From Lysobacter antibioticus HS124 (lineage in GTDB: Bacteria > Pseudomonadota > Gammaproteobacteria > Xanthomonadales > Xanthomonadaceae), in NCBI RefSeq assembly GCF_000336385.2, contig NZ_HG424467.1, positions 1 to 40,150 of the forward strand: 40,150 bases of DNA. Direction: 5' to 3'. Both the position numbers and the translations under genes were made by a program. The notes under the pieces are model-generated. The model was not told where the DNA came from. It made no database searches and worked only from the letters and a program-made list of their open reading frames with translations. Of the stretch, positions 4,113 to 32,813 are shown one piece after another; position 1 is the stretch's first letter; the number at the start of each line of letters is the position of its first letter.

Positions 4113-4123
4113 AGGACGCCGCC

Positions 4124-4357
4124 ATGCCCGCTCCCCCGCCCCCTTCCGGCAAGCCCTCGCGCGATGCGGTCGGTTTCTGGTTCCTCGGCCTCGGCCTGCT
4201 CGGCCTGGTGCGTTCGCTGATGCGCGCCAACCGCAACGGCAGCTTCGACGCCGATGCGATCACCCTGCTGTGGCTGATCGGTTCGATCCTGCTGACCGCG
4301 ATGGGCGCGCTGCGGCTGTGGCGCAGCTGGCGCGAGGGCCGTCCGCCGCGCGCCTGA
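4124..4357 (+). CDS. Small two-helix membrane protein, hypothetical
   Basis: This 77-residue protein has a Pro-rich N-terminus and two hydrophobic stretches (about 17-30 and 46-61) separated by a short polar loop. It ends in an Arg-rich tail, which suggests a cytoplasmic C-terminus. It starts with ATG 11 nt after the PAP2 gene and is probably cotranscribed with it. I do not recognise a family, and the function is unknown. Its codon use matches its neighbours, which supports a real gene. Confidence 0.65.
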
Positions 4358-4440
4358 ACCGCGCGGCTTTGCGAAAACCCGGCGACAGGCGCAAGCTTTT
4401 ACACCCCATTCGCAGCCCTTGCGCGCACCGCCCCGGTCTC

Positions 4441-5427: not shown

Positions 5428-5519
5428 TCCGGCCGGGTGCCCGCGGGTCGGCGCTTCCGCTCGCGGCACCCCGGCAGCTCTCATCGCGAAGCCCCGCACT
5501 CCATGCAGCGAACGCCGTA

Positions 5520-5999
5520 ATGACCCAAGGCCCCGTCCGACTCGATGTCACCGTCAACTATGCGATGCCGCGCAAAGGCCTGCCGGCCGCGACCAGCTTC
5601 CGCAAGTGGGTCGCGGCGGCGCTGGCCGGACGCATCCGCGAAGCCGATCTGGCGATCCGCCTGGTCGACAGCAAGGAAGGCCGCGCGCTCAACCGCCACT
5701 ATCGCGGCCGCGACTACGCCACCAACGTGCTCAGCTTTCCCGCCGACCTGCCCGAAGGCCTGCCGGAGGGCGTGCGCCTGCCGCTGCTCGGCGACCTGGT
5801 GATCTGCCCCCCGGTGGTCGCCCGCGAAGCGCGCGAGCAGAAGAAAGCGCTCAACGATCACTACGCCCACCTGACCGTGCATGGCGTCCTGCACCTGCTC
5901 GGCTGGGACCACGAGGACGAGCGCGAGGCCGAGTGCATGGAGCAACTCGAGCGCGAGATCCTCGCCGGGCTCGGCATCGCCGATCCGTACCGCGAGTAA
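5520..5999 (+). CDS. ybeY: Endoribonuclease YbeY
   Basis: This 159-residue metalloprotein carries the YbeY signature [11 protein letters not shown], with His121, His125 and His131 as zinc ligands. The conserved block NVLSFP is at about 69-74. YbeY acts in 16S rRNA 3' end maturation and 70S ribosome quality control. The start is ATG at 5520, whose A is the last base of a TAA. Length and motifs match the family fully. It lies between ybeZ and a pseudopilin gene on the same strand. Confidence 0.95.
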
Positions 6000-14990: not shown

Positions 14991-17072
14991 TTACTGGCCG
15001 ATGTGCTTCTTCAGCCAGGCGTTGACCGTGTCGTGCCACTGCACGCTGTTGTGCGGCTTGAGCACCCAGTGGTTCTCGTCCGGGAAGTACAGGAACTGGG
15101 ATTCGATGCCCTGGCGCTGCAGCGCGGTGAACACGCCGATGCCCTGCTCGACCGGAATGCGGAAGTCCTGCTGGCCGTGGATCACCAGCATCGGCACCTT
15201 CCAGTCCTTCACATGGTTGACCGGGTTGAACTTCTCGTAGCTGGCCGGCTTGTCGTACGGCGTGCCGCCCTGCTCCCACTCGGTGAACCACAGCTCTTCG
15301 GTGGCGTAGCCCATCATGCGCTGGTCGAACACGCCGTCGTGGCTGACCAGGCACTTCCAGGGCTGCGGCCAGTTGCCGGCGATCCAGTTGACCATGAAGC
15401 CGCCGTAAGACGCGCCCAGCGCGCAGGCCTTGTCGCCGTCGAGGAAGGGGTACTTCTTCTGCGCCGCGGCCCAGCCCTTCTGCAGGTCTTCCAGCGGACG
15501 GTCGCCCCAGTGCTGGCTGATCGCGTCGGTGAAGGCTTGGCCGTAACCGGTCGAGCCGTGGAAATCGATCATCACCACCGCATAGCCCTGGCCGGCATAG
15601 GTCTGCGGGTTCCAGCGGTAGCTCCAGCCGTTGCCGAAGCTGCCCTGCGGGCCGCCATGGATCAGGAACGCGACCGGGTACTTCCGGCCTTCCTGGTAGT
15701 TCCACGGCTTGACCACGTAGCCGTACACCGTGTCGCCGTTCCAGCCCTTGAAGTCGAACTGTTCGAAATCGCCGAACTTGACCCCGGGCAGCAGCTCCGA
15801 CGCGCTCGGCGTGATCGCGCGCTGCGGCGCGCCGTCGAGACCGCCGACGAAGATCTGGTCGCCGCTCTTGAGGCTGTTGCGGGTGAAGGCCAAGGTCTTG
15901 CCGGCCAACGCGACCGAGCCGACCGAGCCGTCGCCGATCAGCAAGGTCGCCTTGCCGCTGGCGATGTCGACGCCGAACAGCGGCTGCTGGCCGAGGTCTT
16001 CGGTGGTGGTGTAGATGCTCTTGCCGTCGCCGGACAAGACGATGCCGGAAGCCGAACGGTCCCATTGCGGCGCAATCTCGCGCGCTTTGCCGCTGGCCAG
16101 GTCGAGCGCCATCAGGCCGAAACGGTCGGCCTCGAAGCCCGGGCGCTTCATCGCACGGTAGTAAAGCGTCTTGCCGTCGGCGCTGAACACCGCGCCGGTG
16201 TCCCAGGCGGGATTCGCAGCGGTCAGGTTCTTGGCCGGGCCGCCGTCGGCGCCGACCTGGTACAGATCGAAATTGGTCGACCACGGCTCCTTGGCATCGG
16301 CCTGGCGCGCGCTGAACACCAGCGAGCGGCCGTCCGGCGCCCAGGTGTATTCGCTGCTGTCGCCGAACGGGCGCGAGGGCACGTCGCCGTTCACTTCGCC
16401 GCTGACCAGCTTGACGCTGGATACGGTCTTGCCGGCGGCCGGCAGCTCGGCGACGAACAGCCGGTTCAGGCGACCGTCGTTCCAGGCGTCCCAGTGACGG
16501 ATGAACATCCGGTCGAAGACCTTGCCGGTGGCTTTGTTCTTCTCAGCCGCGTCGAGCTTCTTCTTGCTGCAGGCCAGATCGGCGGCGCAGTCGGGATAGG
16601 CCTCGGCGTTGAAGGCGACACGCTTGCCGTCGGGCGAGATCTGGAAGCCGCCGACGTCGCCGTCGAAGGCGGTGATCTGCTTCGGCGTGCCGCCACTCAG
16701 CGGCAACGAATACAGCTGCGAGCTGCCGTTCTTGCTGCTGAGGAAGTACACGCTCTTGCCGTCCGGCGCGAACGCCGGCGAGTTGACGTTCCAGCCTTCC
16801 GGGCTCAGGCGCTTGGGCGGCGCGGCGTCGCGCGCGAACAAGTCTTCGATCCACAGCGAAGTGGTCGATTTGTTGGCGGCGAAGTCGACGCTGCGCTTGG
16901 CGAACACCAGTTGGCGGCCGTCGGGCGACAGCGTCGGCGAGGAGAAGCGGTCCATGCTGGCCAGATCGCGGATCTGCAGTCCCTGCGGCGCCGCCGGGGT
17001 GAGCGAGAAAGCCGGCGCGGATGCGCAGGCCAGGGTCAGGGCCAGCGGCAGGAGAGCGTGGCGTGGCGTCAT
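14991..17072 (-). CDS. S9-family prolyl-oligopeptidase-type peptidase (secreted)
   Basis: This 693-residue secreted or periplasmic serine peptidase has a signal peptide of about 22 residues (ACASAPAFS-type end). A WD40-like beta-propeller with repeated SPDG/APDG/SADG motifs (about 45-410) follows, then an alpha/beta hydrolase domain. The catalytic triad is Ser555 in GASYGG, Asp636 in GQQDFRIP and His668 in ENHWVL. The family includes dipeptidyl peptidases 4 and 5 and acylaminoacyl peptidases, which remove dipeptides from short peptides. It is the first of two S9 enzymes flanking two peptide transporters. It starts 115 nt downstream of the OPT transporter, on the same strand, with a hairpin between, so it may have its own promoter. 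Confidence 0.92.
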   Translation of the reverse strand: MTPRHALLPLALTLACASAPAFSLTPAAPQGLQIRDLASMDRFSSPTLSPDGRQLVFAKRSVDFAANKSTTSLWIEDLFARDAAPPKRLSPEGWNVNSPAFAPDGKSVYFLSSKNGSSQLYSLPLSGGTPKQITAFDGDVGGFQISPDGKRVAFNAEAYPDCAADLACSKKKLDAAEKNKATGKVFDRMFIRHWDAWNDGRLNRLFVAELPAAGKTVSSVKLVSGEVNGDVPSRPFGDSSEYTWAPDGRSLVFSARQADAKEPWSTNFDLYQVGADGGPAKNLTAANPAWDTGAVFSADGKTLYYRAMKRPGFEADRFGLMALDLASGKAREIAPQWDRSASGIVLSGDGKSIYTTTEDLGQQPLFGVDIASGKATLLIGDGSVGSVALAGKTLAFTRNSLKSGDQIFVGGLDGAPQRAITPSASELLPGVKFGDFEQFDFKGWNGDTVYGYVVKPWNYQEGRKYPVAFLIHGGPQGSFGNGWSYRWNPQTYAGQGYAVVMIDFHGSTGYGQAFTDAISQHWGDRPLEDLQKGWAAAQKKYPFLDGDKACALGASYGGFMVNWIAGNWPQPWKCLVSHDGVFDQRMMGYATEELWFTEWEQGGTPYDKPASYEKFNPVNHVKDWKVPMLVIHGQQDFRIPVEQGIGVFTALQRQGIESQFLYFPDENHWVLKPHNSVQWHDTVNAWLKKHIGQ

Positions 17073-17187: not shown

Positions 17188-19134
17188 TTACGCCTGCGGC
17201 ACCGCCGCGTTCTTGCTGCTGCGGTAGAACAGCCACACCACCGCAGCCAGAACGGCCAGACCGACCAGCGAACCGAAGTGGAACTGCTCCGGCAGCGCCA
17301 ACACCTCGCGGTTGCTGGTGATCACGATCGGGAAGGCGATGGCGATGCCCATCAGCGCCTCGCCGGTGATCAAACCGGCGGCGAACAGGGTGCCCGGACG
17401 GTGCACACGGTCGCTTTCCTCTTCGCTGCTGTTCGCGGTCAGGCCGCGACGGCGGCCGACGATGTGCGACAGCAGGCCGCCGAGGAAGATCGGCACCATC
17501 AGCTCCAACGGCAGGTAGATGCCGATCGCCGCGGCCAGCACCGGCACGCGGAACTTGGCTTTGCGCGACTTCAGCCATTCGTCGAAAGCGATGATGAGCG
17601 CGCCGATGCCGGCGCCGATGCCGATCATCGTCCACGGCAGCTCGCCGCCGAACAGCCCCTTGGCCACCGAAGCCATCAGCGTCGCCTGCGGCGCCGCCAG
17701 CGCGTTGGGATGCTCCGGCGTCGGCGCGCCGATGCCGTAGGCGGCGGACAGCAGGTTCAGCACCGGCGCCATGATCAGCGCGCAGGAGAACGCGCCGATG
17801 CCCAGCATCAGCTGCTGCTTCCACGGCGTGGCGCCGACGATGTAGCCGGCCTTGAGATCCTGCAGGTTGTCGCCGCCGACCGCGGCCGCGCAGCACACCA
17901 CCGCGCCGATCATGATCGCGGCGACCGCGCCGATCGGCGAGTCGCGCCCCAGCATCAGCACCAGCACCGCTGAGGCGAACAGGATGGTGGAGATGGTGAT
18001 GCCCGAGACCGGGTTGTTGGACGAACCGATCAGGCCGGCCAGATAGGCCGACACCGACACGAACAGGAAGCCGGCGACGATCATGATGACGGTCATCGGC
18101 ACGCTGACGAACCAGTTGCCGACGATAGCCTGGTACAGCAGCAACAGCGGCAGCACGAAGCCGACCAGGGCGACCAGCATCCACTTCATCGGCAGGTCGC
18201 GGTCGGTCTCGGCGACGTCGCCGGCCGCCGCGCTCTTGCGCGCCGCGGCCAAGCCGCTCTTGACGCCCGACAGCAGCGACTTGCGCAGCGAGAACAGGGT
18301 CCACACGCCGCCGATCAGCATGGTGCCGACGCCGAGGTAACGCACCTTCGCCGACCAGATCGCGCCGCCGATGTCGGCTGCGCTGCCGCCGGCGATGCGC
18401 GCCGCCAGGGCCGGATCGGAGTCGAGGAAGAACATGTGGTAGATCGGAATCGCGAACTGCCAGGACAGGATCGAACCCGACACGACCACGATGCCGACAT
18501 TGAGGCCGACGATGTAGCCCACGCCGATCAACGCCGGCGACAGGTTGGTGCCCATGTAGCCCAGGTACTTGCCCATGAAGCCGGAGATCACCGCGTTGTC
18601 GGGGATCAGCTTCATGCCGCTTTCGGCGGCGAGCTTGAGCACCGCGCCGATGCCGCCGGCCAGGCCGAGGATCTTCATGCCGGGGCCCGGGTTCTCGCCG
18701 GCCTTGAGCACCTCGGCCGCGGCCTTGCCTTCGGGGAAGGGGAGCGGGTCTTCGACGATCATCGAGCGCCGCAGCGGCACCGAGAACAGCACGCCGAGCA
18801 GGCCGCCGAGGCCGGCGATGGCCAGCACCCAGGAATAACGGAAGTCGTTCCAGTAGCCCAGGATCACCAAGGCCGGGATGGTGAAGATCACGCCGGCCGC
18901 GATCGACGAACCGGCCGACGCGCCGGTCTGGACGATGTTGTTCTCCAGGATGGTGCCGCCGCCGAGCAGGCGCAGCACCGCCATGGAGATCACCGCGGCC
19001 GGGATCGCGGTGGCGATGGTCAGGCCGGCGAACAGGCCCAGGTAGGCGTTGGCGGCGGCCAGGATCACCGCCAGGAAAATCGAGAGCGCGACGGCTCGGA
19101 AGGTCAATTGCTTCTGCGTTGCGGGCGATGCCAT
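17188..19134 (-). CDS. OPT-family oligopeptide transporter
   Basis: This 648-residue inner-membrane protein has about 15 hydrophobic helices and family-typical blocks: NAYLGLFAGLTIATAIPAAV near 28-47, GGTILENNIVQTGASAG near 58-74 and EDPLPFPEGKAAAEVL near 127-142. OPT proteins are proton-driven importers of oligopeptides or metal-peptide chelates. I prefer ATG 19134: GGAG lies 6 nt before it, inside the codons of the alternative ATG at 19146. An S9 peptidase gene follows on the same strand. A POT transporter gene is divergent. Import by OPT and cleavage by S9 enzymes would form a peptide-use pathway; whether cleavage precedes uptake depends on where the S9 enzymes act. Confidence 0.9.
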   Translation of the reverse strand: MASPATQKQLTFRAVALSIFLAVILAAANAYLGLFAGLTIATAIPAAVISMAVLRLLGGGTILENNIVQTGASAGSSIAAGVIFTIPALVILGYWNDFRYSWVLAIAGLGGLLGVLFSVPLRRSMIVEDPLPFPEGKAAAEVLKAGENPGPGMKILGLAGGIGAVLKLAAESGMKLIPDNAVISGFMGKYLGYMGTNLSPALIGVGYIVGLNVGIVVVSGSILSWQFAIPIYHMFFLDSDPALAARIAGGSAADIGGAIWSAKVRYLGVGTMLIGGVWTLFSLRKSLLSGVKSGLAAARKSAAAGDVAETDRDLPMKWMLVALVGFVLPLLLLYQAIVGNWFVSVPMTVIMIVAGFLFVSVSAYLAGLIGSSNNPVSGITISTILFASAVLVLMLGRDSPIGAVAAIMIGAVVCCAAAVGGDNLQDLKAGYIVGATPWKQQLMLGIGAFSCALIMAPVLNLLSAAYGIGAPTPEHPNALAAPQATLMASVAKGLFGGELPWTMIGIGAGIGALIIAFDEWLKSRKAKFRVPVLAAAIGIYLPLELMVPIFLGGLLSHIVGRRRGLTANSSEEESDRVHRPGTLFAAGLITGEALMGIAIAFPIVITSNREVLALPEQFHFGSLVGLAVLAAVVWLFYRSSKNAAVPQA

Positions 19135-19490
19135 CGGCGTCTCCATCGCGGTAGGTCGGGCGGTAAGGCGGCGTATGGGCGGGTGGGGATCGCCGCCGGG
19201 CGGCGCCGCACAATCCGCCGATGATCGCATCCGCCGCGGGCGCCTGTAAAAGTGCAGTGCGGCAAAAAGCGTGATTGCGCAAACCTAGGCCGCGCCGCGG
19301 CAAAGCGGGGTTTTCCGCATTCATCGGGGAAAAGCGCGATCGCGCCCCGCCGCGGTGGGCCGCCCGGCACAGACGCCGTCCGCCGTAGCGACGGGCGCGC
19401 CGCCCGCTCCGGCCTATACTCGCGCTTCCCGGTACGGTCCGGCCCGGACCGGCCGGGACCGGGCTGATCCCACGAGAGGAACGTCCGCAC
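19135..19490. promoter_or_regulatory. Divergent promoter region of OPT and POT transporters
   Basis: This 356-nt interval has no gene. On the plus strand TATACT at 19415-19420 is a good -10 box for the POT gene, with no clear -35. A T-rich patch on the minus strand (about 19246-19290) is the likely OPT promoter area. GAGAGGA at about 19473-19480 is the POT ribosome binding site. The shared region would allow joint control of both peptide importers. Confidence 0.55.
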
Positions 19491-21263
19491 GTGCCCGCCA
19501 GCCCCGCCCTGCCCGCCTCCGCCGCTTCGCGCGCCGACGAGTTCCTCGGCCATCCCAAGGGTCTGTACGTCTGCTTCTTCACCGAGATGTGGGAGCGCTT
19601 CTCCTTCTACGGCATGAAGGCGCTGTTGCTGCTGTACTTGCTCAAGTACCACCTGTTCGGCGACGACGCCGGCTACGACCTGATCGGCGCCTACGGCGGC
19701 CTGGTCTATGCCGTGCCGGTGATCGGCGGCCTGCTCGCCGACCGGTATCTGGGCATGCGCAAGGCGGTGGTGCTGGGCGGCGTGCTGCTGGTGCTCGGGC
19801 ACCTGGGCATGGCCTACGAGGGCCATGCGGCGAAGATGGTGAACGGCGTGGCGGTGCGCGACGAGACCGCGTTGCAGGTGTTCTATCTGTCGCTGGCGTT
19901 GATCATCGCCGGAGTCGGCTTCCTCAAGCCGAACATCTCCACCATCGTCGGCCGGCTCTACGCCGAGAACGACCCGCGCCGCGATTCGGGCTTCACCCTG
20001 TTCTATGCCGGGATCAACGTCGGCGCGCTGTTCTCGGCCTTGATCTGCGCCTTCCTCGGCGAGACCTACGGCTGGAAGTACGGCTTCGGCGCCGCCGGCA
20101 TCGGCATGGTGGCCGGCCTGCTGATGTTCCTGTGGGGCCAGCGCTATCTGCACGGCCATGCCGAACCGGCCGACCCGGCCAGGCTGCGCGAAACAGTCCG
20201 CGGCCTGTCGCGCGAGGCCTGGATCTACCTGGGCAGCGCCGCCGGCGTGCTGGCGCTGTGGGGCACCATCCAGCTGGCGTCGCAGGTCACCCTGCGCCTG
20301 GGCAGCCTCGACTTCACCGCCGCGCTGGGCATCATGCTGGCGACGCTGGCGGTGTTCCTGATCTGGTTCTTCGGCTTCATCGCCCGCCATTGCGGCCAGG
20401 TCGAACGCCAGCAGATGCTGGCCCTGGTGGTGCTGATCTTCGCGGTGCTGATCTTCTTCACCCTGTACGAGCAGACCTACGGCTCCTGGGTGACCTTCAA
20501 CGATCGCCTGATGACCAAGGACATGTTCGGCCTGGCGGTCGGACAGTACGCGCCGACCCTGCCATGGTCGCTGTTCTCGATGGCGGCCAGCCCGCCGCTG
20601 ATGGTCGCCGCCCTGGTCGCCAGCGACCGCGGACGCGACGGCCTGGCCAAAATCCTGGTGGCCGTGCTGGTGTTCGGCCTGGCTCTGGCGACCGCGCACG
20701 ACGTGGTGCTGGTGCCGCAGACCGCCGGCTCGCTGACCTACCTGGGCGCGTTCTTCATCGTCGTGCTGGCGCCGTTGTTCTCCTGGCTGTGGCCGTGGCT
20801 GGCGCGGCGCGGGCGCAGCCCGGGCAAGCCGGTGACCATGGCCCTGGGGCTGGTCTTCGCCGGCCTGTCGTTCCTGCCGCTGGTGGCCGCGGCCGATATC
20901 GCCGCCGGCGGCGTCATGGCCAGCGTGTGGTACCTGGTCGCGGCGTATTTCATTCTCGAGGTCGGCGAAATGTGCCTGTCGCCGATCGGTCTGTCGGCGG
21001 TGACCCAGCTGTCGGTCGCGCGCGTGGTCGGCCTGATGATGGGCGCGTTCTGGCTGGCGACGGCCTTCTCGGAAGTGCTGGCCGCACAGTTGGCCAAGAT
21101 CGCCTCGGTCGAGATTCCCGAAGGCGGCGCGATCGACATGGCCGCGGCCGCCGCCAAGTACGGCGAACTGTTCTCGATGCTGATGTGGCTGGGCGTCGGC
21201 TCCGGCGCCGTCTTCCTGCTGCTGGCGCCGCTGCTGCGGCGCTGGATGCATGGCGTGAAATGA
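19491..21263 (+). CDS. POT-family proton-dependent di/tripeptide transporter
   Basis: This 590-residue major-facilitator protein has at least 12 helices. It carries the POT signatures: ETMWERFSFYG-like FTEMWERFSFYGMKALL (about 30-46, the ExxERFxYY-type motif) and GFLKPNISTIVG (about 143-154). A FYAGINVGAL block follows near 174-183. POT proteins import di- and tripeptides with protons. The start is GTG 19491 with GAGAGGA upstream; no nearer ATG fits. Loops after helix 6 and the extra hydrophobic segments give a length above the 450-520 usual for bacteria, resembling the longer gammaproteobacterial group. It is divergent from the OPT transporter and convergent with the second S9 peptidase. Confidence 0.93.
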   Translation: MPASPALPASAASRADEFLGHPKGLYVCFFTEMWERFSFYGMKALLLLYLLKYHLFGDDAGYDLIGAYGGLVYAVPVIGGLLADRYLGMRKAVVLGGVLLVLGHLGMAYEGHAAKMVNGVAVRDETALQVFYLSLALIIAGVGFLKPNISTIVGRLYAENDPRRDSGFTLFYAGINVGALFSALICAFLGETYGWKYGFGAAGIGMVAGLLMFLWGQRYLHGHAEPADPARLRETVRGLSREAWIYLGSAAGVLALWGTIQLASQVTLRLGSLDFTAALGIMLATLAVFLIWFFGFIARHCGQVERQQMLALVVLIFAVLIFFTLYEQTYGSWVTFNDRLMTKDMFGLAVGQYAPTLPWSLFSMAASPPLMVAALVASDRGRDGLAKILVAVLVFGLALATAHDVVLVPQTAGSLTYLGAFFIVVLAPLFSWLWPWLARRGRSPGKPVTMALGLVFAGLSFLPLVAAADIAAGGVMASVWYLVAAYFILEVGEMCLSPIGLSAVTQLSVARVVGLMMGAFWLATAFSEVLAAQLAKIASVEIPEGGAIDMAAAAAKYGELFSMLMWLGVGSGAVFLLLAPLLRRWMHGVK

Positions 21264-21364: not shown

Positions 21365-23365
21365 CTACTTCGCCCCGGTCGACGCGGCGGCCCCCGCAGG
21401 CGCCGCCGTCCGGCCGCCGAGCGAGCGCGACAGGAACGCCAGCAAGCGGGTGTAGAACTCGCGCTGGTGCTCATCGACGTAGAAGCCGTGGCCTTCGGTC
21501 TTGTAGTACAGGGTTTCCACCGGCACCCCGGCGGCGCGCAAGGCCTTCTCCATCTTCTCGCTGTGCGCGATCGGCGCGCGCTGGTCTTCGCCGCCCGCGG
21601 CCAGGAACACCGGCACCTTGATCTGTTGCGCCAGTTCGGTCGGCGAGACTTTGGCGGTCTCTTCCTTGGAGCCGATCCATTCGCGGAGGTAGGTTTCGCC
21701 CGAACCGGCCTTCTGGATGTCGCCGGTGCTGTGCATCATCGGCAGGTCGTAGACGCCGACGTAACCGGCCGCGCACTTGTACAGCGCGGGCTCCTTGGCC
21801 ACGCCCATCAGCGAGGCGTAGCCGCCGTAGCTGGCGCCGTACAGACAGATCCTGGCCGGATCGGCCACGCCCTGCTCGATCGCCCAACGGGTCGCATCGG
21901 TGAGGTCGTTCTGCATCGCGCCGCCCCACTGGCGCTGGCCGGCGAGCCGGAACGCACGCCCGTAGCCTGCGGAGCCGCGGTAGTTGAGCTGCAGCACGGC
22001 ATAGCCGGCCTGGGCCAGCATCTGCGCGTCGCTGTCGAACTGCCACACGTCCTGGATGCCGAACGGACCGCCGTGCGGCATCACCACCATCGGCAAGGAC
22101 TTGCCGCTGCTGTCCTTGGGCGTGGTCAACAGGCCGGACAGCGCCAGGCCGTCGCGGGCTTTGAGCCGGATCGGACGCACCGGCGCCATCTTTTCCGGGT
22201 CGACCCAGGAGCCGCGGCTGATCACATGCGCGGCATGCTTCTTGGCGTTGTCGTACAGGAAAATGTCGCCGGGGTTGCGGTCGCTCCAGCTGCGCAGCAG
22301 AGCCAGACCGCCGTCTGCGGTCTCGGAGGTGATGCGCACGCCCTCGCCCTTGAACGCGGCTTCCAGGCTGCGGTACTGCTTGGCCTCCGGCGAATTCTTG
22401 TCGAAGAATTCGCTGCGCGGCACGCCGTCGGCGAAGAACACGCCGACCGGGGTATTGCTGTTGCGACGATAGATCACCCGATCCGGATCGGCGACCGCGT
22501 CGCGCAGGATCTCCTTGCGGGTCTGGTTGGCGATGTCGAAGGCGACGATCGCATCCGGGCCCTGCGGCTGCTCGCTGCGGAAGTAGGCGATGCTGTCGTC
22601 GGCGGAGAAGCCGATCGGATGATCGATGCCCTCGCCCTGCGCGTCGGAACGCAGCAACTGCCAGTCCTTGCCTTCGCCGGCGCGGTAGAACAGCTTGCGC
22701 ACGTTGTCGGTGCCGTAGCCGAGGGCGAAGCGGACCACGCCCTGGTGGTCGGTGGTGAAGTCGGCGTTGCGCACCGGCGCGATCGCGATCTGGTTGCGGC
22801 GACCGGTGTACACGTCCAGGCGCTCGGCGCGGGTGTAGGCGTCGGCGGCGAACTGCTGCACCGAGATCACCACATTCTTGTCGTCGCCGGGCAGGTCGTC
22901 GACCAGGAAGGCGGCGACCTCCTCGACCTTCTTCGGCTGGATGCGGGTGCCGGCGCCGGCGCCGCGCACGCGGTAACCGACCAGCACGTCGATGCCGGTG
23001 CCGTTGGCGTTCATCGCATAGATTTCGCCGGTCAGCTGCGGCTGGTCGCGCGAACCCAGCTTCTGCGCCATGCCGATCAGCACCCGGGTCGGGCTGACCC
23101 AGTGGAAGTCGTGCACGTGATTGTTCTTGCCGAGCCGGAATGCGCCGGTCATCTTCATGCCCTCGCGGGTGAAGATCACCAACATGGTTTCGTTCTCGGC
23201 CGGCACCGAGGCGGCGTAGAACTCGCCGGTCGGCGAAAGCTTGATGTCGACGAAGGCGTCGCGCTTGACGAACGAGGCCACGTCCACGCCGTCCGCAGCG
23301 CTCGCGCCCGCCGGCAGTGCCGCCAGCCCGGCGGCCAGCAGCAGCGAATATCCCCAGAGTTTCAT
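21365..23365 (-). CDS. S9-family peptidase, second copy (secreted)
   Basis: This 666-residue protein has a signal peptide (hydrophobic about 6-20, ending GASA) and a diverged propeller-like N-terminal domain. It ends in a prolyl-oligopeptidase catalytic domain with Ser512 in GASYGG, Asp594 in GGEDQRAP and His626 in EGHGFY. It is clearly different from the first S9 protein: its propeller lacks the repeated SPDG motifs. The C-terminal tail is rich in Ala, Gly and Pro. ATG 23365 fits the signal peptide; a longer frame upstream has no family content. A TTGTGC-18-TATGAT promoter lies 70-100 nt upstream. Probable role: cleaving oligopeptides in the periplasm or outside the cell. Confidence 0.91.
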   Translation of the reverse strand: MKLWGYSLLLAAGLAALPAGASAADGVDVASFVKRDAFVDIKLSPTGEFYAASVPAENETMLVIFTREGMKMTGAFRLGKNNHVHDFHWVSPTRVLIGMAQKLGSRDQPQLTGEIYAMNANGTGIDVLVGYRVRGAGAGTRIQPKKVEEVAAFLVDDLPGDDKNVVISVQQFAADAYTRAERLDVYTGRRNQIAIAPVRNADFTTDHQGVVRFALGYGTDNVRKLFYRAGEGKDWQLLRSDAQGEGIDHPIGFSADDSIAYFRSEQPQGPDAIVAFDIANQTRKEILRDAVADPDRVIYRRNSNTPVGVFFADGVPRSEFFDKNSPEAKQYRSLEAAFKGEGVRITSETADGGLALLRSWSDRNPGDIFLYDNAKKHAAHVISRGSWVDPEKMAPVRPIRLKARDGLALSGLLTTPKDSSGKSLPMVVMPHGGPFGIQDVWQFDSDAQMLAQAGYAVLQLNYRGSAGYGRAFRLAGQRQWGGAMQNDLTDATRWAIEQGVADPARICLYGASYGGYASLMGVAKEPALYKCAAGYVGVYDLPMMHSTGDIQKAGSGETYLREWIGSKEETAKVSPTELAQQIKVPVFLAAGGEDQRAPIAHSEKMEKALRAAGVPVETLYYKTEGHGFYVDEHQREFYTRLLAFLSRSLGGRTAAPAGAAASTGAK

Positions 23366-23435
23366 TGCCCGTCCCCCCAATGAACGTCGTCCGTGGCGGC
23401 CGCCGAAGCGACCGCTGCCGCTGCGCGACGGGTCG

Positions 23436-23465
23436 ATCATAGGGGTTGCTACCGCGGTCGCACAA
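23436..23465 (-). promoter_or_regulatory. Sigma-70-like promoter of the second S9 peptidase
   Basis: On the minus strand TTGTGC (23465-23460) and TATGAT (23441-23436) are separated by 18 nt. Transcription would begin near 23429, about 64 nt before ATG 23365. Confidence 0.5.
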
Positions 23466-23471
23466 ACGCGT

Positions 23472-23498
23472 GCACATCGCGGCCCAAGCCGCGTGTAC
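23472..23498 (-). terminator. Hairpin after rmlD
   Basis: CGCGGC / GCCGCG around CCAA, extended by imperfect GTGCA / TGTAC ends, lies 25 nt after the rmlD stop. It has no T tract, so it is only a possible terminator for the rml operon. Confidence 0.35.
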
Positions 23499-23522
23499 GG
23501 GCTGCGGCAGGGGTCGCCGGGC

Positions 23523-24422
23523 TCAGCCGGCCGGCCGGTCCAGCGTCGCGCTCAGCGCCTGGCGCCAGTGCGGCACGTCCAAGCCGTATTCGGCCCGCAG
23601 GCGGCCGCTGTCCAGCACCGAATACGCCGGGCGCCGGGCCGGGGTCGGATAGTCGGCGGTGCCGATCGCCTCGACCCGCGGCCGGCGCGCGATCAGGCCG
23701 CGCGCTTGCGCTTCCTCGAAGATCGCCTCGGCGAAACCGTGCCAACTGGTTTGGCCGCCGGCGACCAGGTGGCGCACGCCGGACTGCTTGAGCCCCTGCC
23801 GCAACACCTGCGCCGCGGCGTCGGCCAACAACCAGGCCGGGGTCGGCGAACCGTGCTGGTCGGCGACCACGCGCAATTCCTCGCGTTCGCCGCCCAGACG
23901 CAGCATGGTGCGCAGGAAGTTGTGGCCGCGGGTGGCGTAGACCCAGGCCGTGCGCAGGATCAGATGCTCGGCGCCGCTGGCCCGGATCGCCTCCTCGCCG
24001 GCCAGCTTGCTCTCGCCATAGACGCTGATCGGGCCGGTCGGATCGGTTTCGAGATAAGGCCGGCTGCCGCTGCCGTCGAAGACGTAGTCGGTCGAATAGT
24101 GGATCAGGCCGATCCCATCCGCCGCGCACAGCTGCGCCAGCCGCGCCGGCGCCTGCGCATTGACCGCGAAGGCGAGCTCGCGCTCGCTCTCGGCGCGGTC
24201 CACCGCGGTATAAGCGGTCGCGTTGACCACGTGATCCGGGCGCACCCGCCGCAGCAGGGGTTCGATCGCGTCGGCCTGGGCCAGGTCCAGGGCTTCGCAC
24301 TCCGCCCCGTCGTCGGCCAGACGTCCGCTGCGCGTGGTCGTCACCACCTCGCCCAGTGCGGACAGGCTGCGGCGCAGTTCGTGGCCGACCTGGCCGTCGC
24401 CGCCGAGCAGCAACAGCCTCAC
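23523..24422 (-). CDS. rmlD: dTDP-4-dehydrorhamnose reductase
   Basis: This 299-residue NADPH-dependent reductase carries out the last step of dTDP-L-rhamnose synthesis. The Rossmann motif GGDGQVG lies at 7-13. The catalytic Thr/Tyr/Lys are in HYSTDYVFDG and VYGESKLAGE. TAYTAVDRAE is the family block near the nicotinamide site. GTG 24422-24420 overlaps the rmlC TGA as GTGA, which gives translational coupling and fixes the start. It is the last gene of rmlBACD. Confidence 0.95.
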   Translation of the reverse strand: MRLLLLGGDGQVGHELRRSLSALGEVVTTTRSGRLADDGAECEALDLAQADAIEPLLRRVRPDHVVNATAYTAVDRAESERELAFAVNAQAPARLAQLCAADGIGLIHYSTDYVFDGSGSRPYLETDPTGPISVYGESKLAGEEAIRASGAEHLILRTAWVYATRGHNFLRTMLRLGGEREELRVVADQHGSPTPAWLLADAAAQVLRQGLKQSGVRHLVAGGQTSWHGFAEAIFEEAQARGLIARRPRVEAIGTADYPTPARRPAYSVLDSGRLRAEYGLDVPHWRQALSATLDRPAG

Positions 24423-24976
24423 GGCGCGTACACCGGCAAGCGGTCCTCGGCGATGTCCTTCAACCGCGGCGCGACCGCGTCCTTGGCCGACAGGCCGGGC
24501 TCGCTGACCGGCCAGTCGATCGCCAGGTCCGGGTCGTCCCAACGCACGCCGGCATCGGCCTTGGCGTCGTAGACGTGGGTACACAGATAGCTGAACACCG
24601 CACGCTCGCTGAGCACGGCAAAGCCGTGGGCGAAACCTTCCGGTATCCATAAATGGCGCTTGTTCTCGGCGCTGAGGACCGCCGCGGTCCAGCGGCCGTA
24701 ATGCGGCGAGCCGCGGCGGATGTCGACCGCGACGTCCCAGACTTCGCCTTCAAGCACCGAGACGTACTTGCCCTGCGGATTGGGCCACTGGTAATGCAGG
24801 CCACGCAGCACGCCGCGCGCCGACGAGGACACGTTGCCCTGCACGAAGCGCGGGTTCAGGCCGTGCGCGGCGAGCTTGTCCTGGTTGAACGATTCGTAGA
24901 AGAAGCCGCGCGCGTCGCCGAACACTTGCGGTTCGATGACGACGCAACCGGGCAGATCGGTTTCGATGACTTTCAA
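24419..24976 (-). CDS. rmlC: dTDP-4-dehydrorhamnose 3,5-epimerase
   Basis: This 185-residue cupin is typical in length for RmlC. His61 in RGVLRGLHYQ is the catalytic base position and a Tyr in FSYLCTHVY (about 130-136) the acid. KRHLWIPEGFAHGF (106-119) is a family signature. I infer TTG at 24976-24974 as start, with GAGGA just upstream; the longer frame runs back into rmlA and cannot be real there. It lies 10 nt after rmlA and overlaps rmlD. It epimerises C3 and C5 of dTDP-4-keto-6-deoxyglucose. Confidence 0.94.
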   Translation of the reverse strand: MKVIETDLPGCVVIEPQVFGDARGFFYESFNQDKLAAHGLNPRFVQGNVSSSARGVLRGLHYQWPNPQGKYVSVLEGEVWDVAVDIRRGSPHYGRWTAAVLSAENKRHLWIPEGFAHGFAVLSERAVFSYLCTHVYDAKADAGVRWDDPDLAIDWPVSEPGLSAKDAVAPRLKDIAEDRLPVYAP

Positions 24977-24986
24977 ACGGTCTTCC

Positions 24987-25871
24987 TCACGGTACGAAGC
25001 CGCGTTCGGACAGGCCGAGCAGGTACTGGCCGTAGCCGTTCTTGGCCAGCGGGCGGGCCAGTTCGACCAATTGGGCGGCATCGATCCAACCATTGCTCCA
25101 GGCGATTTCCTCGGGGCAGCAAACGCGCAACCCCTGGCGGGCTTCGATGGTTTCGATGTAGTTGGACGCTTCCAGCAGCGATTGATGGGTACCGGTGTCG
25201 AGCCAGGCATAGCCGCGGCCGAACCGCTCCAGATGCAGCGAGCCCTCTTCCAGGTAGATCCGGTTGAGGTCGGTGATCTCCAGCTCGCCGCGCGCCGACG
25301 GCTTGAGCCCGGCGGCGAATTCGCTGGCGCGGCCGTCGTAGAAGTACAGGCCGGTGACCGCATAGTTGGAGCGCGGCTTGGCCGGCTTCTCTTCCAGGCC
25401 GATCACCTGCCCTTCGCGGTCGAACTCGGCCACGCCGTAGCGCTCCGGATCGCTGACCCAATAGCCGAACACGGTCGCGCCGCGCTCGCGCTGGTCGGCG
25501 CGCTTGAGCATCGCGGTCAGGCCGGGGCCATGGAAGATGTTGTCGCCGAGCACCAGGCAGCTGGGCTGGCCGGCGACGAAATCCTCGCCGATCAGATAGG
25601 CCTGGGCCAGGCCGTCCGGGCTCGGCTGCACCGCGTACTCGATCTTCATGCCCCATTGCGAACCGTCGCCCAGCAGGTTCTTGAACAGCGCCTGCTCGTG
25701 CGGGGTGTTGATGATCAGCACTTCGCGGATGCCCGCCAGCATCAGCACGCTGAGCGGGTAGTAGATCATCGGCTTGTCGTACACCGGCAGCAGCTGCTTG
25801 CTGATGCCCTGGGTGATCGGATACAGCCGGGTGCCGGAGCCGCCGGCGAGAATGATGCCCTTGCGGTTCAT
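24987..25871 (-). CDS. rmlA: Glucose-1-phosphate thymidylyltransferase
   Basis: This 294-residue nucleotidyltransferase is full length. The signature GGSGTRLYP is at 10-18, with Lys in [22 protein letters not shown] holds the metal-binding Asp and EEKPAKP the conserved Lys. It joins glucose-1-phosphate and dTTP into dTDP-glucose, and is usually inhibited by dTDP-rhamnose. ATG 25871 lies 10 nt after rmlB, and rmlC follows 10 nt later. Confidence 0.96.
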
Positions 25872-25881
25872 GCGCGCGTCC

Positions 25882-26934
25882 TCAGGCCTGACCGATGCGT
25901 TCCAGGCGGTAGCTGCCGTCGAGCACTCGCTGCACCCAGGCCTGGTTGTCCAGGTACCAATCGACGGTGCGGGCGATGCCCTGTTCGAAGGTCAGGGTCG
26001 GCGCCCAGTCCAGCTCGCTCTTGAGCTTGGAGGCGTCGATGGCGTAGCGGCGATCGTGGCCCGGCCGGTCGGTCACGTAGGTGATCAGCGACTCGCGCGC
26101 GCGGCCGTCGGCCAGCGGCCGGCGCTGGTCGAGCAGCGCGCAGATGGTCTTGACCACGACGATGTTGGCGCGTTCGGCGTCGCCGCCGACGTTGTAGGTC
26201 TCGCCGATGCGGCCGGCCTCCAGCACTCGCGCGATCGCCGAGCAGTGGTCGCCGACGAACAACCAGTCGCGCACGTTAAGGCCGTCGCCGTACACCGGCA
26301 ACGGCTCGCCGGCCAGGGCCTTGGCGATGATCAGCGGGATGAGCTTTTCCGGGAACTGATACGGCCCGTAATTGTTCGAGCAGTTGGTGGTCAGGACCGG
26401 CAGGCCGTAGGTGTGGTGGAAAGCGCGCACCAGGTGGTCGGACGCGGCCTTGGAGGCCGAGTACGGCGAATTCGGCGCGTACGGCGTGGTCTCGGTGAAC
26501 TTGCCGGTCTCGCCCAGGCTGCCGTAGACCTCGTCGGTGGACACGTGCAGGAAGCGGAAGCCGTCGCGCGCCGGCGCGTCGAGCTGCTTCCAGTAATCGC
26601 GCACCTGCTCCAGCAGGCTCAGGGTGCCGACCACGTTGGTGTGGACGAACGCGGCCGGGCCATCGATCGAGCGGTCGACGTGGCTTTCGGCGGCGAAATT
26701 GATCACCGCGTCGGGGCGGTGCTCGGCCAGCAGGCGCTTGACCAGGGCCGCATCGCCGATGTCGCCCTGGACGAAGACGTGGTTCGGGTTGCCTTCCAGG
26801 CTGCCGAGGGTGTCGAGGTTGCCCGCGTAGGTCAGGGCGTCGAGGTTGACGACCTTGATGCCCTTTCGCACCGCATCGAGAACGAAGTTACCGCCAATAA
26901 AGCCGGCACCGCCGGTCACAAGCCAAGTAGGCAC
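25882..26934 (-). CDS. rmlB: dTDP-glucose 4,6-dehydratase
   Basis: This 350-residue SDR dehydratase is the first gene of rml[12 protein letters not shown] at 8-15 binds NAD. STDEVYG and the YSASK motif (Tyr and Lys) form the active site. [15 protein letters not shown] is the family substrate block. The start is GTG 26934-26932 with AAGGAG 8 nt upstream, a strong site that decides the start. A TACAAT box at 27049-27044 predicts a leader of about 100 nt. The product feeds rhamnose into LPS or exopolysaccharide; no glycosyltransferase genes lie in the window. Confidence 0.96.
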
Positions 26935-29876: not shown

Positions 29877-30270
29877 GGAACAAGAATTCAACAGCGACAC
29901 CGCATCCACGCCCGCAATGAACATCCGCCATCGCACTTCCTTCCTCGAGAGGACATCGATAAGGACGACTGATCGATGGACTCAGTTCATGAATCAGGCT
30001 TCGGCATAAGTGTGATTAGGACGCACCAGGACAGAGATTGACTCAGTGGTGTCGCATACGAACCATAGAAAGTGTGCCTTCTTTAATTGTTGTCCATTCA
30101 AGTCGTTGATGACGGTCAAACGTGCCTGCTGGCACGTTTATTGCGGCAAGAATCTCCGGCAGGGCGGTCGCAGCGATCGGGATGGCTCTGCGACCGTGGT
30201 GGCCTCGCCGCCATATGTCCATCGACTCGGGCCGCTCCTGCCGTGGTCCGCACCGACACAGGATTTCTTC
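29877..30270 (+). other. Upstream region of the metzincin gene
   Basis: This 394-nt stretch is lower in GC than the flanks. I find no supported gene; a possible 44-codon frame from 29875 has no recognisable content. TTGACT at 30038-30043 is a fair -35 hexamer, but only weak -10 words (ACCATA area, 30062-30067) follow it. The protease start ATG at 30271 has CAGGA about 9 nt upstream. Confidence 0.45.
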
Positions 30271-32061
30271 ATGAAGCCGACGATCGCCTGTTTGATTCCC
30301 CTGTTCGCCTTGCTGTCCGCCCCCGCCGCCGCCACCGACCTCAGTCCCAATCAGGTCGGCGGCGACATCCCGGGCAACTACGCCCAGATCGATTTCTATC
30401 TCAAGAACGGCGATTGGGCGCCCAAGCTGACCCTGTCCAACGCCGCCGGCGACGGCTACACCGTCGCGATCCATTCCACCGCGGGCTACGACAGCCAGTT
30501 GGCGACCGGCAACACCGACTATCCACTGAGTTCGATGCCTATCCGGGCCGGCGATAGCCTGTCGTTCGTCTACCGGGCCGGCCAACGGCAATGGAGCCTG
30601 GTCGGCCCCTCGCTGAGCCCGAACGGCAACGGCGGCAGCGGCGCCATCGCCAGCTATCCGAACGCCCGCGTGCTGCGCTTCAACCTCGCCGATGGCGATT
30701 GGGCGCAGTCGGTCACCCTGCCCTCCAGCGCTCCGGACAACAGCCTGATCGTGGTCTCGTCCTCGGCCACCTGGAACAGCCGCATCAATCCGCAGAACAT
30801 CCAGTACGCCAGCAGCTTCAACCTGCGCAACGGCGACCAGTACGCTTTCCTGTACCGCACCGCGCTGCAGCGCTGGGTCAGCGTCAAAGCGCCGACGCAA
30901 GCTTTCGACGCCGGCAAGATCGGCACGCAGATCCCGACGCCGGTGGTGCCCAACACCCAGGTCAGGCTCGCCGACGGCAACTGGGTTTCCGAGCTCCGTC
31001 TGCCCGCCAACGCCGGCGACCGCGACCGGGTGAGCATCGTCTCCGATGCCAGCTGGACCGCGACCATCTCCGGCCAGAACGTGGATGCGGCCGCGACGAT
31101 GAAGCTGGTCGCCGGTTCGCGTTACGACTTCATCTACATCAAGGAACGCGCTCGCTGGGTGCTGCAGTCCAGCCCGACTCCGGCCTACACCGCGAACGGC
31201 CCGGGCGGATCGCAACTGCCCGACATGACGTCGCCGAACGCGCGCTACTCGGCTGCGGACGGCAACTGGGCCGCCACGGTGAAGCTGCCGGTCAACGCGA
31301 CCCCGGGCGACCGCGTCGTGGTCAAGAGCGACGCAAGCTGGGATTTCAACGTCACCGGCCAGAACACCACCTTCGGCACGGTTCCGGTCCGTCGCGGCGA
31401 GACCCTGCGCTTCGTCCGCACCGCGGCCGGCGCGTGGTCGCTCGACACCCGCCTGATCACCATGCTGTTGATCTACAGCGAGGAAGCGGCCGCGCAACTC
31501 GGCGAGACCGCAGCGCAGATGCGGCTGTGGGAAGGGCTGCGGCTGACCAATGAAGCGCTGGAGAACTCCCGGGTCAACTTCTACGTCAAGGCGGTCGGCA
31601 TGATCAAGCGGCAGTTCCAGGCCACCACGCTCGGCGACATCCTCAACGTCGCGCTCAAGGACTCGGTGGTCAGCTCGACCCGCACGCAACTGGCCGCCGA
31701 TGCGGTCTATTACGAGGGCACCGAGGAAGGCTGCGGCCTGGCCTGGGTCAACGCGAGCCGCGACAACATGATCGGCTCGGGCTCGCTGGGCTGCGGCACC
31801 ACCGTGATGCGCCATGAGTTCGGCCACAACATGGGCCTGAACCACGGCGACGACGCCAGCGGCGGCTCGGCGCCGTACGCCAAGGGCTACAGCCTGATCT
31901 CCGACATCATGGGCGGCAACGCGATCCCCTACTACTCCAATCCAAACCTCTACACGACCGACACCGAAGTCGCGACAGGCCTGCCGATGGGCATCGCCAA
32001 CGTCACCGACTCGGTGCGGGCGATGAACGAGCGCTCCCAACTGGTTTCCGAGTTCTATTGA
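30271..32061 (+). CDS. Secreted metzincin (reprolysin-like) metalloprotease with four tandem repeats
   Basis: This 596-residue protein has a signal peptide of about 21 residues, then four tandem beta-rich repeats (about 40-110, 135-205, 229-298, 325-391). Each has a D/N-G-(D/N)-W element, a Ser-Ala-Thr/Ser-Trp-like turn and an aromatic end. The catalytic domain (about 395-596) carries HEFGHNMGLNH at 515-525 (zinc ligands His515, His519, His525; Glu516 catalytic) and a Met-turn in SDIMGG (Met547). Cys488 and Cys508 may form a disulfide. Related proteases normally carry an N-terminal propeptide; here repeats occupy that place. A propeptide-like protein is encoded next. A longer frame from 30046 lacks family content. 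Likely an extracellular protease whose repeats bind polymer or cell wall. Confidence 0.85.
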   Translation: MKPTIACLIPLFALLSAPAAATDLSPNQVGGDIPGNYAQIDFYLKNGDWAPKLTLSNAAGDGYTVAIHSTAGYDSQLATGNTDYPLSSMPIRAGDSLSFVYRAGQRQWSLVGPSLSPNGNGGSGAIASYPNARVLRFNLADGDWAQSVTLPSSAPDNSLIVVSSSATWNSRINPQNIQYASSFNLRNGDQYAFLYRTALQRWVSVKAPTQAFDAGKIGTQIPTPVVPNTQVRLADGNWVSELRLPANAGDRDRVSIVSDASWTATISGQNVDAAATMKLVAGSRYDFIYIKERARWVLQSSPTPAYTANGPGGSQLPDMTSPNARYSAADGNWAATVKLPVNATPGDRVVVKSDASWDFNVTGQNTTFGTVPVRRGETLRFVRTAAGAWSLDTRLITMLLIYSEEAAAQLGETAAQMRLWEGLRLTNEALENSRVNFYVKAVGMIKRQFQATTLGDILNVALKDSVVSSTRTQLAADAVYYEGTEEGCGLAWVNASRDNMIGSGSLGCGTTVMRHEFGHNMGLNHGDDASGGSAPYAKGYSLISDIMGGNAIPYYSNPNLYTTDTEVATGLPMGIANVTDSVRAMNERSQLVSEFY

Positions 32062-32068
32062 CCGCCGG

Positions 32069-32097
32069 TCCGCCGGCGGGTCTCGCCCGCCGGCGGA
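32069..32097 (+). terminator. GC hairpin between protease and propeptide-like gene
   Basis: A perfect 12-bp stem TCCGCCGGCGGG / CCCGCCGGCGGA with loop TCTCG begins 7 nt after the protease stop. It is followed by TCTCTCCCCC, not a T tract. It may attenuate read-through or protect the protease mRNA, and so set the ratio of the two products. Confidence 0.55.
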
Positions 32098-32123
32098 TCT
32101 CTCCCCCGCAAGGACATCCCGAC

Positions 32124-32813
32124 ATGCCTCTCTCGCGAAACCGGGCCCTGATTCTCGGACTCGTCCTGACCGGCGCCGCCACTGTCGGCCTGCTGGTGTA
32201 CTACCGGACCGCCCCCGGCGCCACGGGCAACCTGCTGCAGGACCCCGCCTACCGACCGAATGCATCGCCCGTCGCCGTTACCACCCGCTCCGGAACCGAC
32301 GGCATAGAGGCCTTCGTCGCCCGCCGCAGCGCTACGTTCTCGCTGGACCGCGCACGCCTGCAGAGCGCGCGTGCGCGCAAGGACCTCCTGCAGCTGGTCG
32401 ATCCGGCCAAGGTCGCCGCCGGCGCCCTGAAACCGACGCCGCGCCAGATGGGCGACGGTCGCCAGTTCGTCGCCTACGACGCCTATGTACTCGAGTCCAA
32501 GGGCGTCGGCGACGATATCGAAGTCTACGTCCCGAACCTCGGACTGACCCTGCACGGCGTGATCGACAACGTCGAAGTCAACGGCGACATCGTGCGCTGG
32601 TCGGGCATGTTCGAAGACTTCAATTCGACCATGAGCAAATTCTCGATCAGCCAGACCATGGTCGACGACTACGTACTGGGCAGCTTCGACACGCCGATGG
32701 GCAGCTACAGCCTGGAAGCCAAGAACGGTCTGGGCTGGGTGGTCGAGCAAGGCGCCGACTTTCATTTGCCGGCCGACGGCAAGGACTACATCGAAGCGAC
32801 GCCGCAGCGCTGA
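32124..32813 (+). CDS. Membrane-anchored, propeptide-like partner of the metzincin
   Basis: This 229-residue protein has one N-terminal membrane helix (about 9-26) after a short basic start, so most of it faces the periplasm. The rest resembles the propeptide of bacterial M12/M72-type metalloproteases: a basic SATFSLDRARL segment (about 69-79), a central DIVRWSGMF strand, then VLGSFDTPMGSYSLEAKNG (about 184-202), a pattern I associate with prodomain ends. It has no catalytic motif. ATG 32124 follows AAGGAC by about 9 nt. It lies 62 nt after the protease, which itself lacks a propeptide. By analogy with Lif lipase foldases, it may fold or inhibit the protease in trans. That is inference from pattern and position. 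Confidence 0.75.
   Translation: MPLSRNRALILGLVLTGAATVGLLVYYRTAPGATGNLLQDPAYRPNASPVAVTTRSGTDGIEAFVARRSATFSLDRARLQSARARKDLLQLVDPAKVAAGALKPTPRQMGDGRQFVAYDAYVLESKGVGDDIEVYVPNLGLTLHGVIDNVEVNGDIVRWSGMFEDFNSTMSKFSISQTMVDDYVLGSFDTPMGSYSLEAKNGLGWVVEQGADFHLPADGKDYIEATPQR

What the first reader, a model, noticed from the sequence alone, without database searches (positions are those of the whole stretch)
30271..32813. Metzincin protease followed by a membrane-anchored, detached propeptide: a possible trans-acting foldase/inhibitor
The 596-residue protease has the zinc site HEFGHNMGLNH and Met-turn but no classic prodomain between signal peptide and catalytic domain. The next gene encodes a protein with one N-terminal membrane helix and no catalytic motif. 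Its segments (SATFSLDRARL, DIVRWSGMF, GSFDTPMGSYSL) look like those of prodomains in bacterial M12/M72 proteases. A split prodomain anchored in the inner membrane would parallel the Lif foldases encoded downstream of lipase genes. It could hold the protease inactive at the membrane until export. I know of no described metzincin system of this type, but I could not search.
Basis: partly seen in the sequence, partly recalled or inferred. Interest (0 to 1): 0.72.

Follow-up and report, generated by a model that had tools for sequence, protein, structure and literature searches.

The report
CpaA protease with prodomain-like chaperone CpaB
A bacterium carries a known kind of secreted protease next to the gene of its membrane-held helper, and sequence comparison suggests that this helper is a piece that related proteases carry built in and that here became a separate gene.

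Summary
At 30271-32062 lies a 596-residue metzincin (HEFGHNMGLNH, Met-turn) without a prodomain before its catalytic domain, and at 32124-32813 a 229-residue protein with one N-terminal hydrophobic helix. In Acinetobacter, CpaB is CpaA's membrane-anchored type II secretion chaperone and its tail blocks the active site (PMC4713064, PMC7542363, passages).

CpaB's periplasmic domain resembles cis prodomains of M72/M12-type metzincins: profile comparison gives probability 86-93%, 300 shuffles at most 13%. In a blind scan of 200 genomes 3 of 8 non-self hits fell in metzincin prodomains. The link is remote and several tests missed it. All 5 loci found through CpaA have a small, apparently exported gene just downstream; two of these seem to lack the anchor.

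Verdict: new member of a known system; CpaB probably descends from a detached prodomain, which I found in no paper that I could search.

The parts
30271..32062 (+). cpaA: secreted metzincin CpaA, 596 aa
   Evidence: NCBIfam NF033511 855.9 bits (cut-off 750), profile 2-575 of 575; PDB 6o38_A E 1.5e-116
30271..30336 (+). Sec signal peptide of CpaA (about residues 1-22)
   Evidence: by reading; 6o38_A aligns from residue 21
30388..31446 (+). four StcE_b-sandwich (PF20944) domains where a prodomain would be expected
31813..31845 (+). zinc site HEFGHNMGLNH
   Evidence: sequence
31909..31911 (+). Met of the Met-turn (SDIMGG)
   Evidence: sequence
32124..32813 (+). cpaB: membrane-anchored type II secretion chaperone CpaB, 229 aa
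   Evidence: NCBIfam NF033512 260.5 bits (cut-off 90); PDB 6o38_G E 1.8e-12
32145..32204 (+). N-terminal membrane anchor of CpaB (about residues 8-27)
   Evidence: hydrophobic stretch by reading; helix 5-29 in a low-confidence model
32463..32753 (+). prodomain-like domain of CpaB (residues 114-210), with W-S-G at 32598-32606
   Evidence: hhalign against 47 N-terminal segments of M72/M12-type metzincins
32736..32810 (+). C-terminal tail of CpaB; FHLPADGKDY resembles the SRMPADHPADY that follows the domain in some cis prodomains
   Evidence: tail listing, patterns chosen by eye; that the Acinetobacter tail blocks the active site is from PMC7542363

Best explanation
This is a CpaA/CpaB pair. CpaA is exported by Sec into the periplasm. 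There the inner-membrane-anchored CpaB binds it, makes or keeps it folded and stable, and covers the zinc cleft with its C-terminal tail until CpaA passes to the type II secretion system; CpaB stays behind. CpaB works, and evolved, as a detached prodomain: its domain is homologous to the cis prodomain that related metzincins carry in front of the catalytic domain, a segment that CpaA lacks. Shown here: identity of both genes by family models, their linkage, a secretin gene in the genome, and a remote profile match of the CpaB domain to cis prodomains. Taken from papers on Acinetobacter: need of CpaB for secretion, 1:1 complex, tail in the active site. Inferred: that the pair in this window behaves in the same way, and the direction of change (a cis prodomain became a separate gene, rather than the reverse).
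For: Identity: NF033511 855.9 bits and NF033512 260.5 bits, both over cut-off; 6o38 chains A and G. GspD over cut-off in 5 of 5 CpaA genomes. Linkage: 5 of 5 loci found through CpaA. Prodomain homology: hhalign of 6 CpaB-type proteins against 47 segments, prob 85.6%, 91.0%, 92.9% trimmed, 92.0% with the Acinetobacter stretch added, P 5.6e-6 to 3.8e-7; the four divergent ones alone 84.2%. 150 block shuffles for each of two query alignments score at most 20.3 and 25.1 against 44.4 and 45.7; reversed profile at most 16.3, catalytic domains at most 11.1. Leaving out any one CpaB gives 77-94%. Blind six-frame scan of 200 genomes with the CpaB profile: of 8 non-self hits at E <= 0.01 per genome, 3 (L075 E 1.2e-5, the best; L078 1.3e-3; L080 2.6e-3) lie before the catalytic domain of a metzincin ORF. 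NCBI's own CpaB model touches the L075 segment at E 0.0049, far under its cut-off. Reciprocal: the prodomain profile finds the CpaB-type gene of G288 at E 0.042, next after three strong matches; among 2780 ORFs of 87 loci the prodomain HMM's best ORFs without a zinc motif are the CpaB-type genes of L014 (E 0.0034) and L013 (E 0.2). CpaA is one group (100/100) in a tree with 51 relatives taken from ORFs with such an N-terminal segment. Acinetobacter work: PMC4713064, PMC7542363, PMC6299215 (passages).
Against: With the two closest CpaBs alone (window and L005) hhalign is not significant (prob 2.7%, P 0.017). The prodomain profile does not find 6o38_G in the PDB at E <= 10 and misses 4 of 5 CpaB-type genes in their genomes at E <= 10. 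By subgroup of prodomains the match is 63.5%, 35.1% and 91.9%. Five of the 8 non-self hits of the blind scan look unrelated or spurious, one (L076, a frame opposite another gene) with the second-best E; about 2 chance hits are expected at that limit in 200 genomes. DELTA-BLAST in PMC4713064 had suggested an SRPBCC/Aha1-like domain. The CpaB structure prediction failed (mean pLDDT 37.6), so no fold comparison was made. The 47 segments were cut by distance from the zinc motif, not checked one by one. The tail is not conserved: L016 ends 2 residues and L015 11 residues after the G-x-GW. CpaA hangs on a long branch and its join to L080 is flagged as a possible long-branch artefact.
Confidence: 0.8

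Rival explanations
1. CpaB here is mainly a periplasmic inhibitor that protects the cell from its own protease (like BamI for Mep72 or AprI for AprA), and the chaperone role is secondary.
For: The Acinetobacter CpaB tail blocks the active site (PMC7542363, passages); BamI relieves Mep72 toxicity in E. coli and binds it (PMC4334185, passages); the Mep72 model weakly matches the CpaA catalytic part (61.2 bits, cut-off 645).
Against: In Acinetobacter loss of CpaB stops CpaA secretion (PMC4713064) and CpaA stability depends on it (PMC7542363). The tail that would plug the site is 2 residues in L016 and 11 in L015. The BamI model gives only E 0.071 to one CpaB-type protein, L014.
Confidence: 0.12
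2. CpaB is an SRPBCC/Aha1-like chaperone; its likeness to prodomains is convergence of short beta-strand patterns.
For: DELTA-BLAST result in PMC4713064; the profile link is remote and some tests miss it.
Against: P0002 matches no Pfam family at E <= 1. Shuffled, reversed and catalytic-domain controls do not give the signal, and the blind scan's best non-self hit, with two more of the eight, lands in metzincin prodomains, the biologically matching place.
Confidence: 0.1
3. The two genes are unrelated neighbours.
For: None found.
Against: Both belong to families known to form a complex, and 5 of 5 loci found through CpaA have such a gene there.
Confidence: 0.01

Closest known systems
CpaA/CpaB of Acinetobacter (PDB 6o38; PMC4713064, PMC7542363)
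   Same: Same protease family with four sandwich domains and a C-terminal catalytic domain, same gene order, anchored partner just downstream, type II secretin present
   Different: Another genus: the closest named relative found is Lysobacter antibioticus (CpaB 65% identical); the window's own genus is not named by the tools. Function here untested
Lif lipase foldases (LipB/LipH)
   Same: By PMC4713064 (passages): N-terminal membrane anchor, periplasmic steric chaperone for one secreted enzyme, gene next to the client
   Different: CpaB matches no lipase-chaperone model; Lif clients are lipases
Cis prodomains of M72/M12-type metzincins (e.g. L019 in the same genome)
   Same: Profile-level similarity over CpaB 114-210, W-x-G element (W-x-G invariant in the 47 segments)
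   Different: Covalent part of the protease, no membrane anchor; W-x-G is only partly kept in the divergent CpaBs
Mep72/BamI of Pseudomonas aeruginosa (PMC4334185)
   Same: Metzincin secreted by type II secretion with a separately encoded partner that binds it (passages)
   Different: bamI lies before mep72 and is described as an inhibitor; the sequence link of BamI to CpaB is not significant here

Membership tests
CpaA (NF033511) | score over the curated cut-off along the whole protein | tested here: met
   855.9 bits, cut-off 750, profile 2-575 of 575
CpaA (NF033511) | four sandwich domains followed by a metzincin catalytic domain with Met-turn | tested here: met
   PF20944 in 4 stretches and Reprolysin models over cut-off; Met-turn by reading
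CpaA (NF033511) | secreted by type II secretion; cleaves O-glycoproteins | not testable with these tools
   GspD present; secretion and specificity untested
CpaB (NF033512) | score over the curated cut-off | tested here: met
   260.5 bits, cut-off 90. The divergent relatives do not meet it: L015 47.4, L014 22.7 bits, L013 and L016 no match
CpaB (NF033512) | encoded directly downstream of cpaA | tested here: met
   61-base gap, same strand
CpaB (NF033512) | single N-terminal membrane anchor | tested here: inconclusive
   hydrophobic stretch about 8-27 by reading and a helix in a low-confidence model; no membrane-helix predictor was run
CpaB (NF033512) | binds CpaA and is needed for its secretion | not testable with these tools
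   reported for Acinetobacter (PMC4713064, PMC7542363)
metzincin (M72/M12-type) prodomains | profile similarity to cis prodomains above controls | tested here: met
   not significant with two CpaBs alone, missed and 4 of 5 genomes of 75
metzincin (M72/M12-type) prodomains | same fold | not tested
BamI (NF052435) | score over the curated cut-off of 180 bits | tested here: not met
   no match for P0002 at E <= 1; 12.9 bits for L014
SRPBCC/Aha1 | match to a Pfam model of that kind | tested here: not met
   P0002: 0 Pfam families at E <= 1; fold not compared
Lif lipase chaperone | match to a lipase-chaperone model | tested here: not met
   P0002: 0 Pfam families, only NF033512 in NCBIfam

The most novel reading that the evidence does not exclude
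CpaB-type type II secretion chaperones are metzincin prodomains that became separate genes: a built-in chaperone/inhibitor turned into a membrane-tethered trans-acting one, with unanchored (signal-peptide) forms in some lineages that may leave the cell together with the protease.
Probability: 0.75. Interest if true: 0.6.

Novelty: new member of a known kind. Interest (0 to 1): 0.45.

Why it matters
In PMC4713064 CpaB is a chaperone with only two weak orthologs outside Acinetobacter and a suggested SRPBCC likeness. A prodomain origin would explain why its tail sits in the active site as in a zymogen, would tie in a wider and more divergent set of loci in this order, and would show how a built-in chaperone can become a separate secretion factor. 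It is testable in one genome, since this one also carries three metzincins with strong matches to the cis-prodomain profile.

Tried and rejected
Rejected: 'no described system'. Not found: a cis fusion of prodomain, sandwich domains and catalytic domain; the PF20944 scan of 160 genomes gave the window's protease and one protein (L084) in which I see no zinc motif. Rejected as evidence: the AlphaFold model of CpaB from a 2-sequence alignment (mean pLDDT 37.6); no fold search was run on it. BamI: its model found no member over cut-off in 185 genomes, and the one sub-threshold hit (L073, E 3.4e-4) is a peptidoglycan-peptidase-like ORF by reading. Viral contigs gave no M72 relative, plasmids no CpaB at E <= 0.01. 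The class-wide CpaA scan (E <= 1e-20) found only the window's own genome among 369. Tail motifs: FPxC-like in 15, [ML]PxD/E-H or close in 13, neither in 20, of 48 segments; the patterns were chosen after looking at the sequences and are a lead only. Rows dropped: 2 of 51 candidate metzincin ORFs by a similarity filter, then duplicates, leaving 47 segments; further places listed were not fetched. L077 and L082 of the blind scan have stops in frame and were not read.

In print, as far as searched: 'CpaB' with 'prodomain' and with 'propeptide' give the same one paper, PMC13393428; in its passages for CpaB and propeptide, CpaB occurs only in the reference list. 'CpaB' + 'Lysobacter' + 'metalloprotease' gives none; the listing shows nothing on this subject. 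Of the 13 papers, 10 were listed and no new one was opened. The structure paper (Urusova 2019) and Kinsella 2017 are not held, so a remark on prodomains there cannot be excluded.

Full report
What is there. The window holds cpaA at 30271-32062 and cpaB at 32124-32813, both on the + strand, 61 bases apart. CpaA has a signal peptide, four StcE_b-sandwich domains and a C-terminal metzincin domain and matches NCBI's CpaA model at 855.9 bits against a cut-off of 750. CpaB matches NCBI's CpaB model at 260.5 bits against 90. Both have Acinetobacter relatives in one co-crystal, 6o38: E 1.5e-116 for chain A, 1.8e-12 for chain G. The genome has one match to the CpaB model, a type II secretin over cut-off and three metzincin ORFs with strong matches to the cis-prodomain profile.

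What is known. PMC4713064 (passages) reports that in A. nosocomialis CpaB is needed for CpaA secretion, calls it the first characterised type II secretion chaperone devoted to a protease, compares it to Lifs, suggests an SRPBCC-like domain, and mentions two weak orthologs outside Acinetobacter, both in Lysobacter antibioticus. [quoted passage not shown] PMC6299215 (passages) needed cpaB together with cpaA for complementation. So a trans-acting chaperone that also covers the active site is described.

Distribution. In 397 genomes of the order, CpaA-like proteases (E <= 1e-40) occur in 5, of which only the window's is over cut-off; NCBI's CpaB model (E <= 1e-5) finds 2. Reading the DNA downstream of the four other proteases shows a small, apparently exported gene in each: 154, 203, 202 and 179 residues (L013, L014, L015, L016). 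With the window this makes 5 of 5. L005 of L. antibioticus has the pair too but was found through CpaB. NCBI's CpaB model matches 4 of the 6 proteins at E <= 1 (P0002, L005, L014, L015) and not L013 and L016. By eye, L013 and L016 begin with a cleavable signal peptide rather than an anchor. The class-wide scan of 369 genomes at E <= 1e-20 found only the window's own, so the pair is rare in what was sampled.

Is CpaB a prodomain? The own-genome protease L019 was searched in 121 genomes of the order; 56 have a match at E <= 1e-10, some of them in the catalytic domain only. From the 30 loci returned, 20 further places and the loci, 51 candidate ORFs were found, 49 kept, and 47 distinct N-terminal segments cut at a fixed distance before the zinc motif. 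W-x-G is invariant in them. Profile-profile comparison with the six CpaB-type proteins gives probability 91.0% and P 1.1e-6, 85.6% and 5.6e-6 with the server's alignment, 92.9% with trimmed domains, and 92.0% with the Acinetobacter stretch added. The four divergent CpaBs alone give 84.2%, the window's and L005 alone 2.7%. Controls: 300 block-shuffled profiles (150 for each of two query alignments) reach at most 12.7%; the reversed profile and catalytic domains stay under 1%. Dropping each CpaB in turn leaves 77-94%; by prodomain subgroup the probability is 63.5% (Cys-tail group, 15), 35.1% (PxDHP group, 12) and 91.9% (the rest, 20).

Blind scan. The CpaB profile was run over 200 genomes of the order in six frames: 9 places at E <= 0.01 per genome, one being the window's, where about 2 would be expected by chance. 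Of the 8 others, 3 lie before the catalytic domain of a metzincin ORF: L075 (E 1.2e-5, the best), L078 (1.3e-3) and L080 (2.6e-3). Pfam Reprolysin models are over cut-off for L078 and L080 and just under it for L075. The other five look spurious or unrelated, including the second-ranked L076; L077 and L082 have stops in frame and were not read. The reverse search with the prodomain profile in the five CpaA genomes found the CpaB-type gene of G288 at E 0.042, right after three strong matches, and missed the other four CpaBs at E <= 10. In a local set of 2780 ORFs from 87 loci the prodomain HMM's best ORFs without a zinc motif were the CpaB-type genes of L014 (E 0.0034) and L013 (0.2). The prodomain profile found only antibody chains and a capsid protein in the PDB, not 6o38_G.

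Tree and tails. In a tree of 57 catalytic domains the six CpaA form one group (100/100) on a long branch; the other 51 rows come from ORFs with such N-terminal segments; the exact neighbour of CpaA is unsure. After the domain, 15 of 48 segments have FPxC-like tails and 13 of 48 have tails such as SRMPADHPADY; the window's CpaB tail reads FHLPADGKDY and that of L005 FYLPADGKDY. Cysteine and aspartate switches are recalled from the metzincin literature, and these patterns were picked by eye, so this is a lead. The tail is short in L015 and nearly absent in L016, which suggests that the domain, not the plug, is the conserved working part.

Mechanism. Most likely: CpaB meets CpaA as it emerges in the periplasm, helps it fold, covers the zinc cleft, and lets go at the type II secretion system. 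It is a prodomain acting in trans. Identity, linkage and remote homology were shown here; binding, folding aid and release are carried over from Acinetobacter or inferred.

Limits. 

Noticed in passing
L013 3520-3981 (-), L016 3496-4032 (-): CpaB-type proteins that begin with what looks by eye like a cleavable signal peptide instead of a membrane anchor, so possibly soluble partners.
   Followed up: partly
L016, CpaA-like ORF (3932-5728 of the reverse complement): The zinc motif reads HELGHLLGIYD, with Asp at the place of the third His ligand.
   Followed up: no
L036 1516-2754 and 2980-4089 (+): Two M72-type metzincins in tandem, the second with a shorter N-terminal segment.
   Followed up: no
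L075 1216-3237 (+), L078 1339-2895 (+), L080 1-1953 (-): Metzincins outside the close M72 set whose N-terminal segments are the nearest cis relatives of CpaB that the blind scan found.
   Followed up: partly
window 23449-26934 (-): Genes that look like a dTDP-sugar (rml) cluster; read from the ORF list only.
   Followed up: no
window 14991-17072 (-) and 21365-23440 (-): Two S9-type peptidase-like genes on either side of transporter-like genes (17188-19230 -, 19491-21263 +); read from the ORF list only.
   Followed up: no
window, many places, e.g. 30043-32265 (-) opposite cpaA: Long antisense frames, usual in GC-rich DNA; such frames also gave likely false profile hits in relatives (L076, L079).
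   Followed up: no
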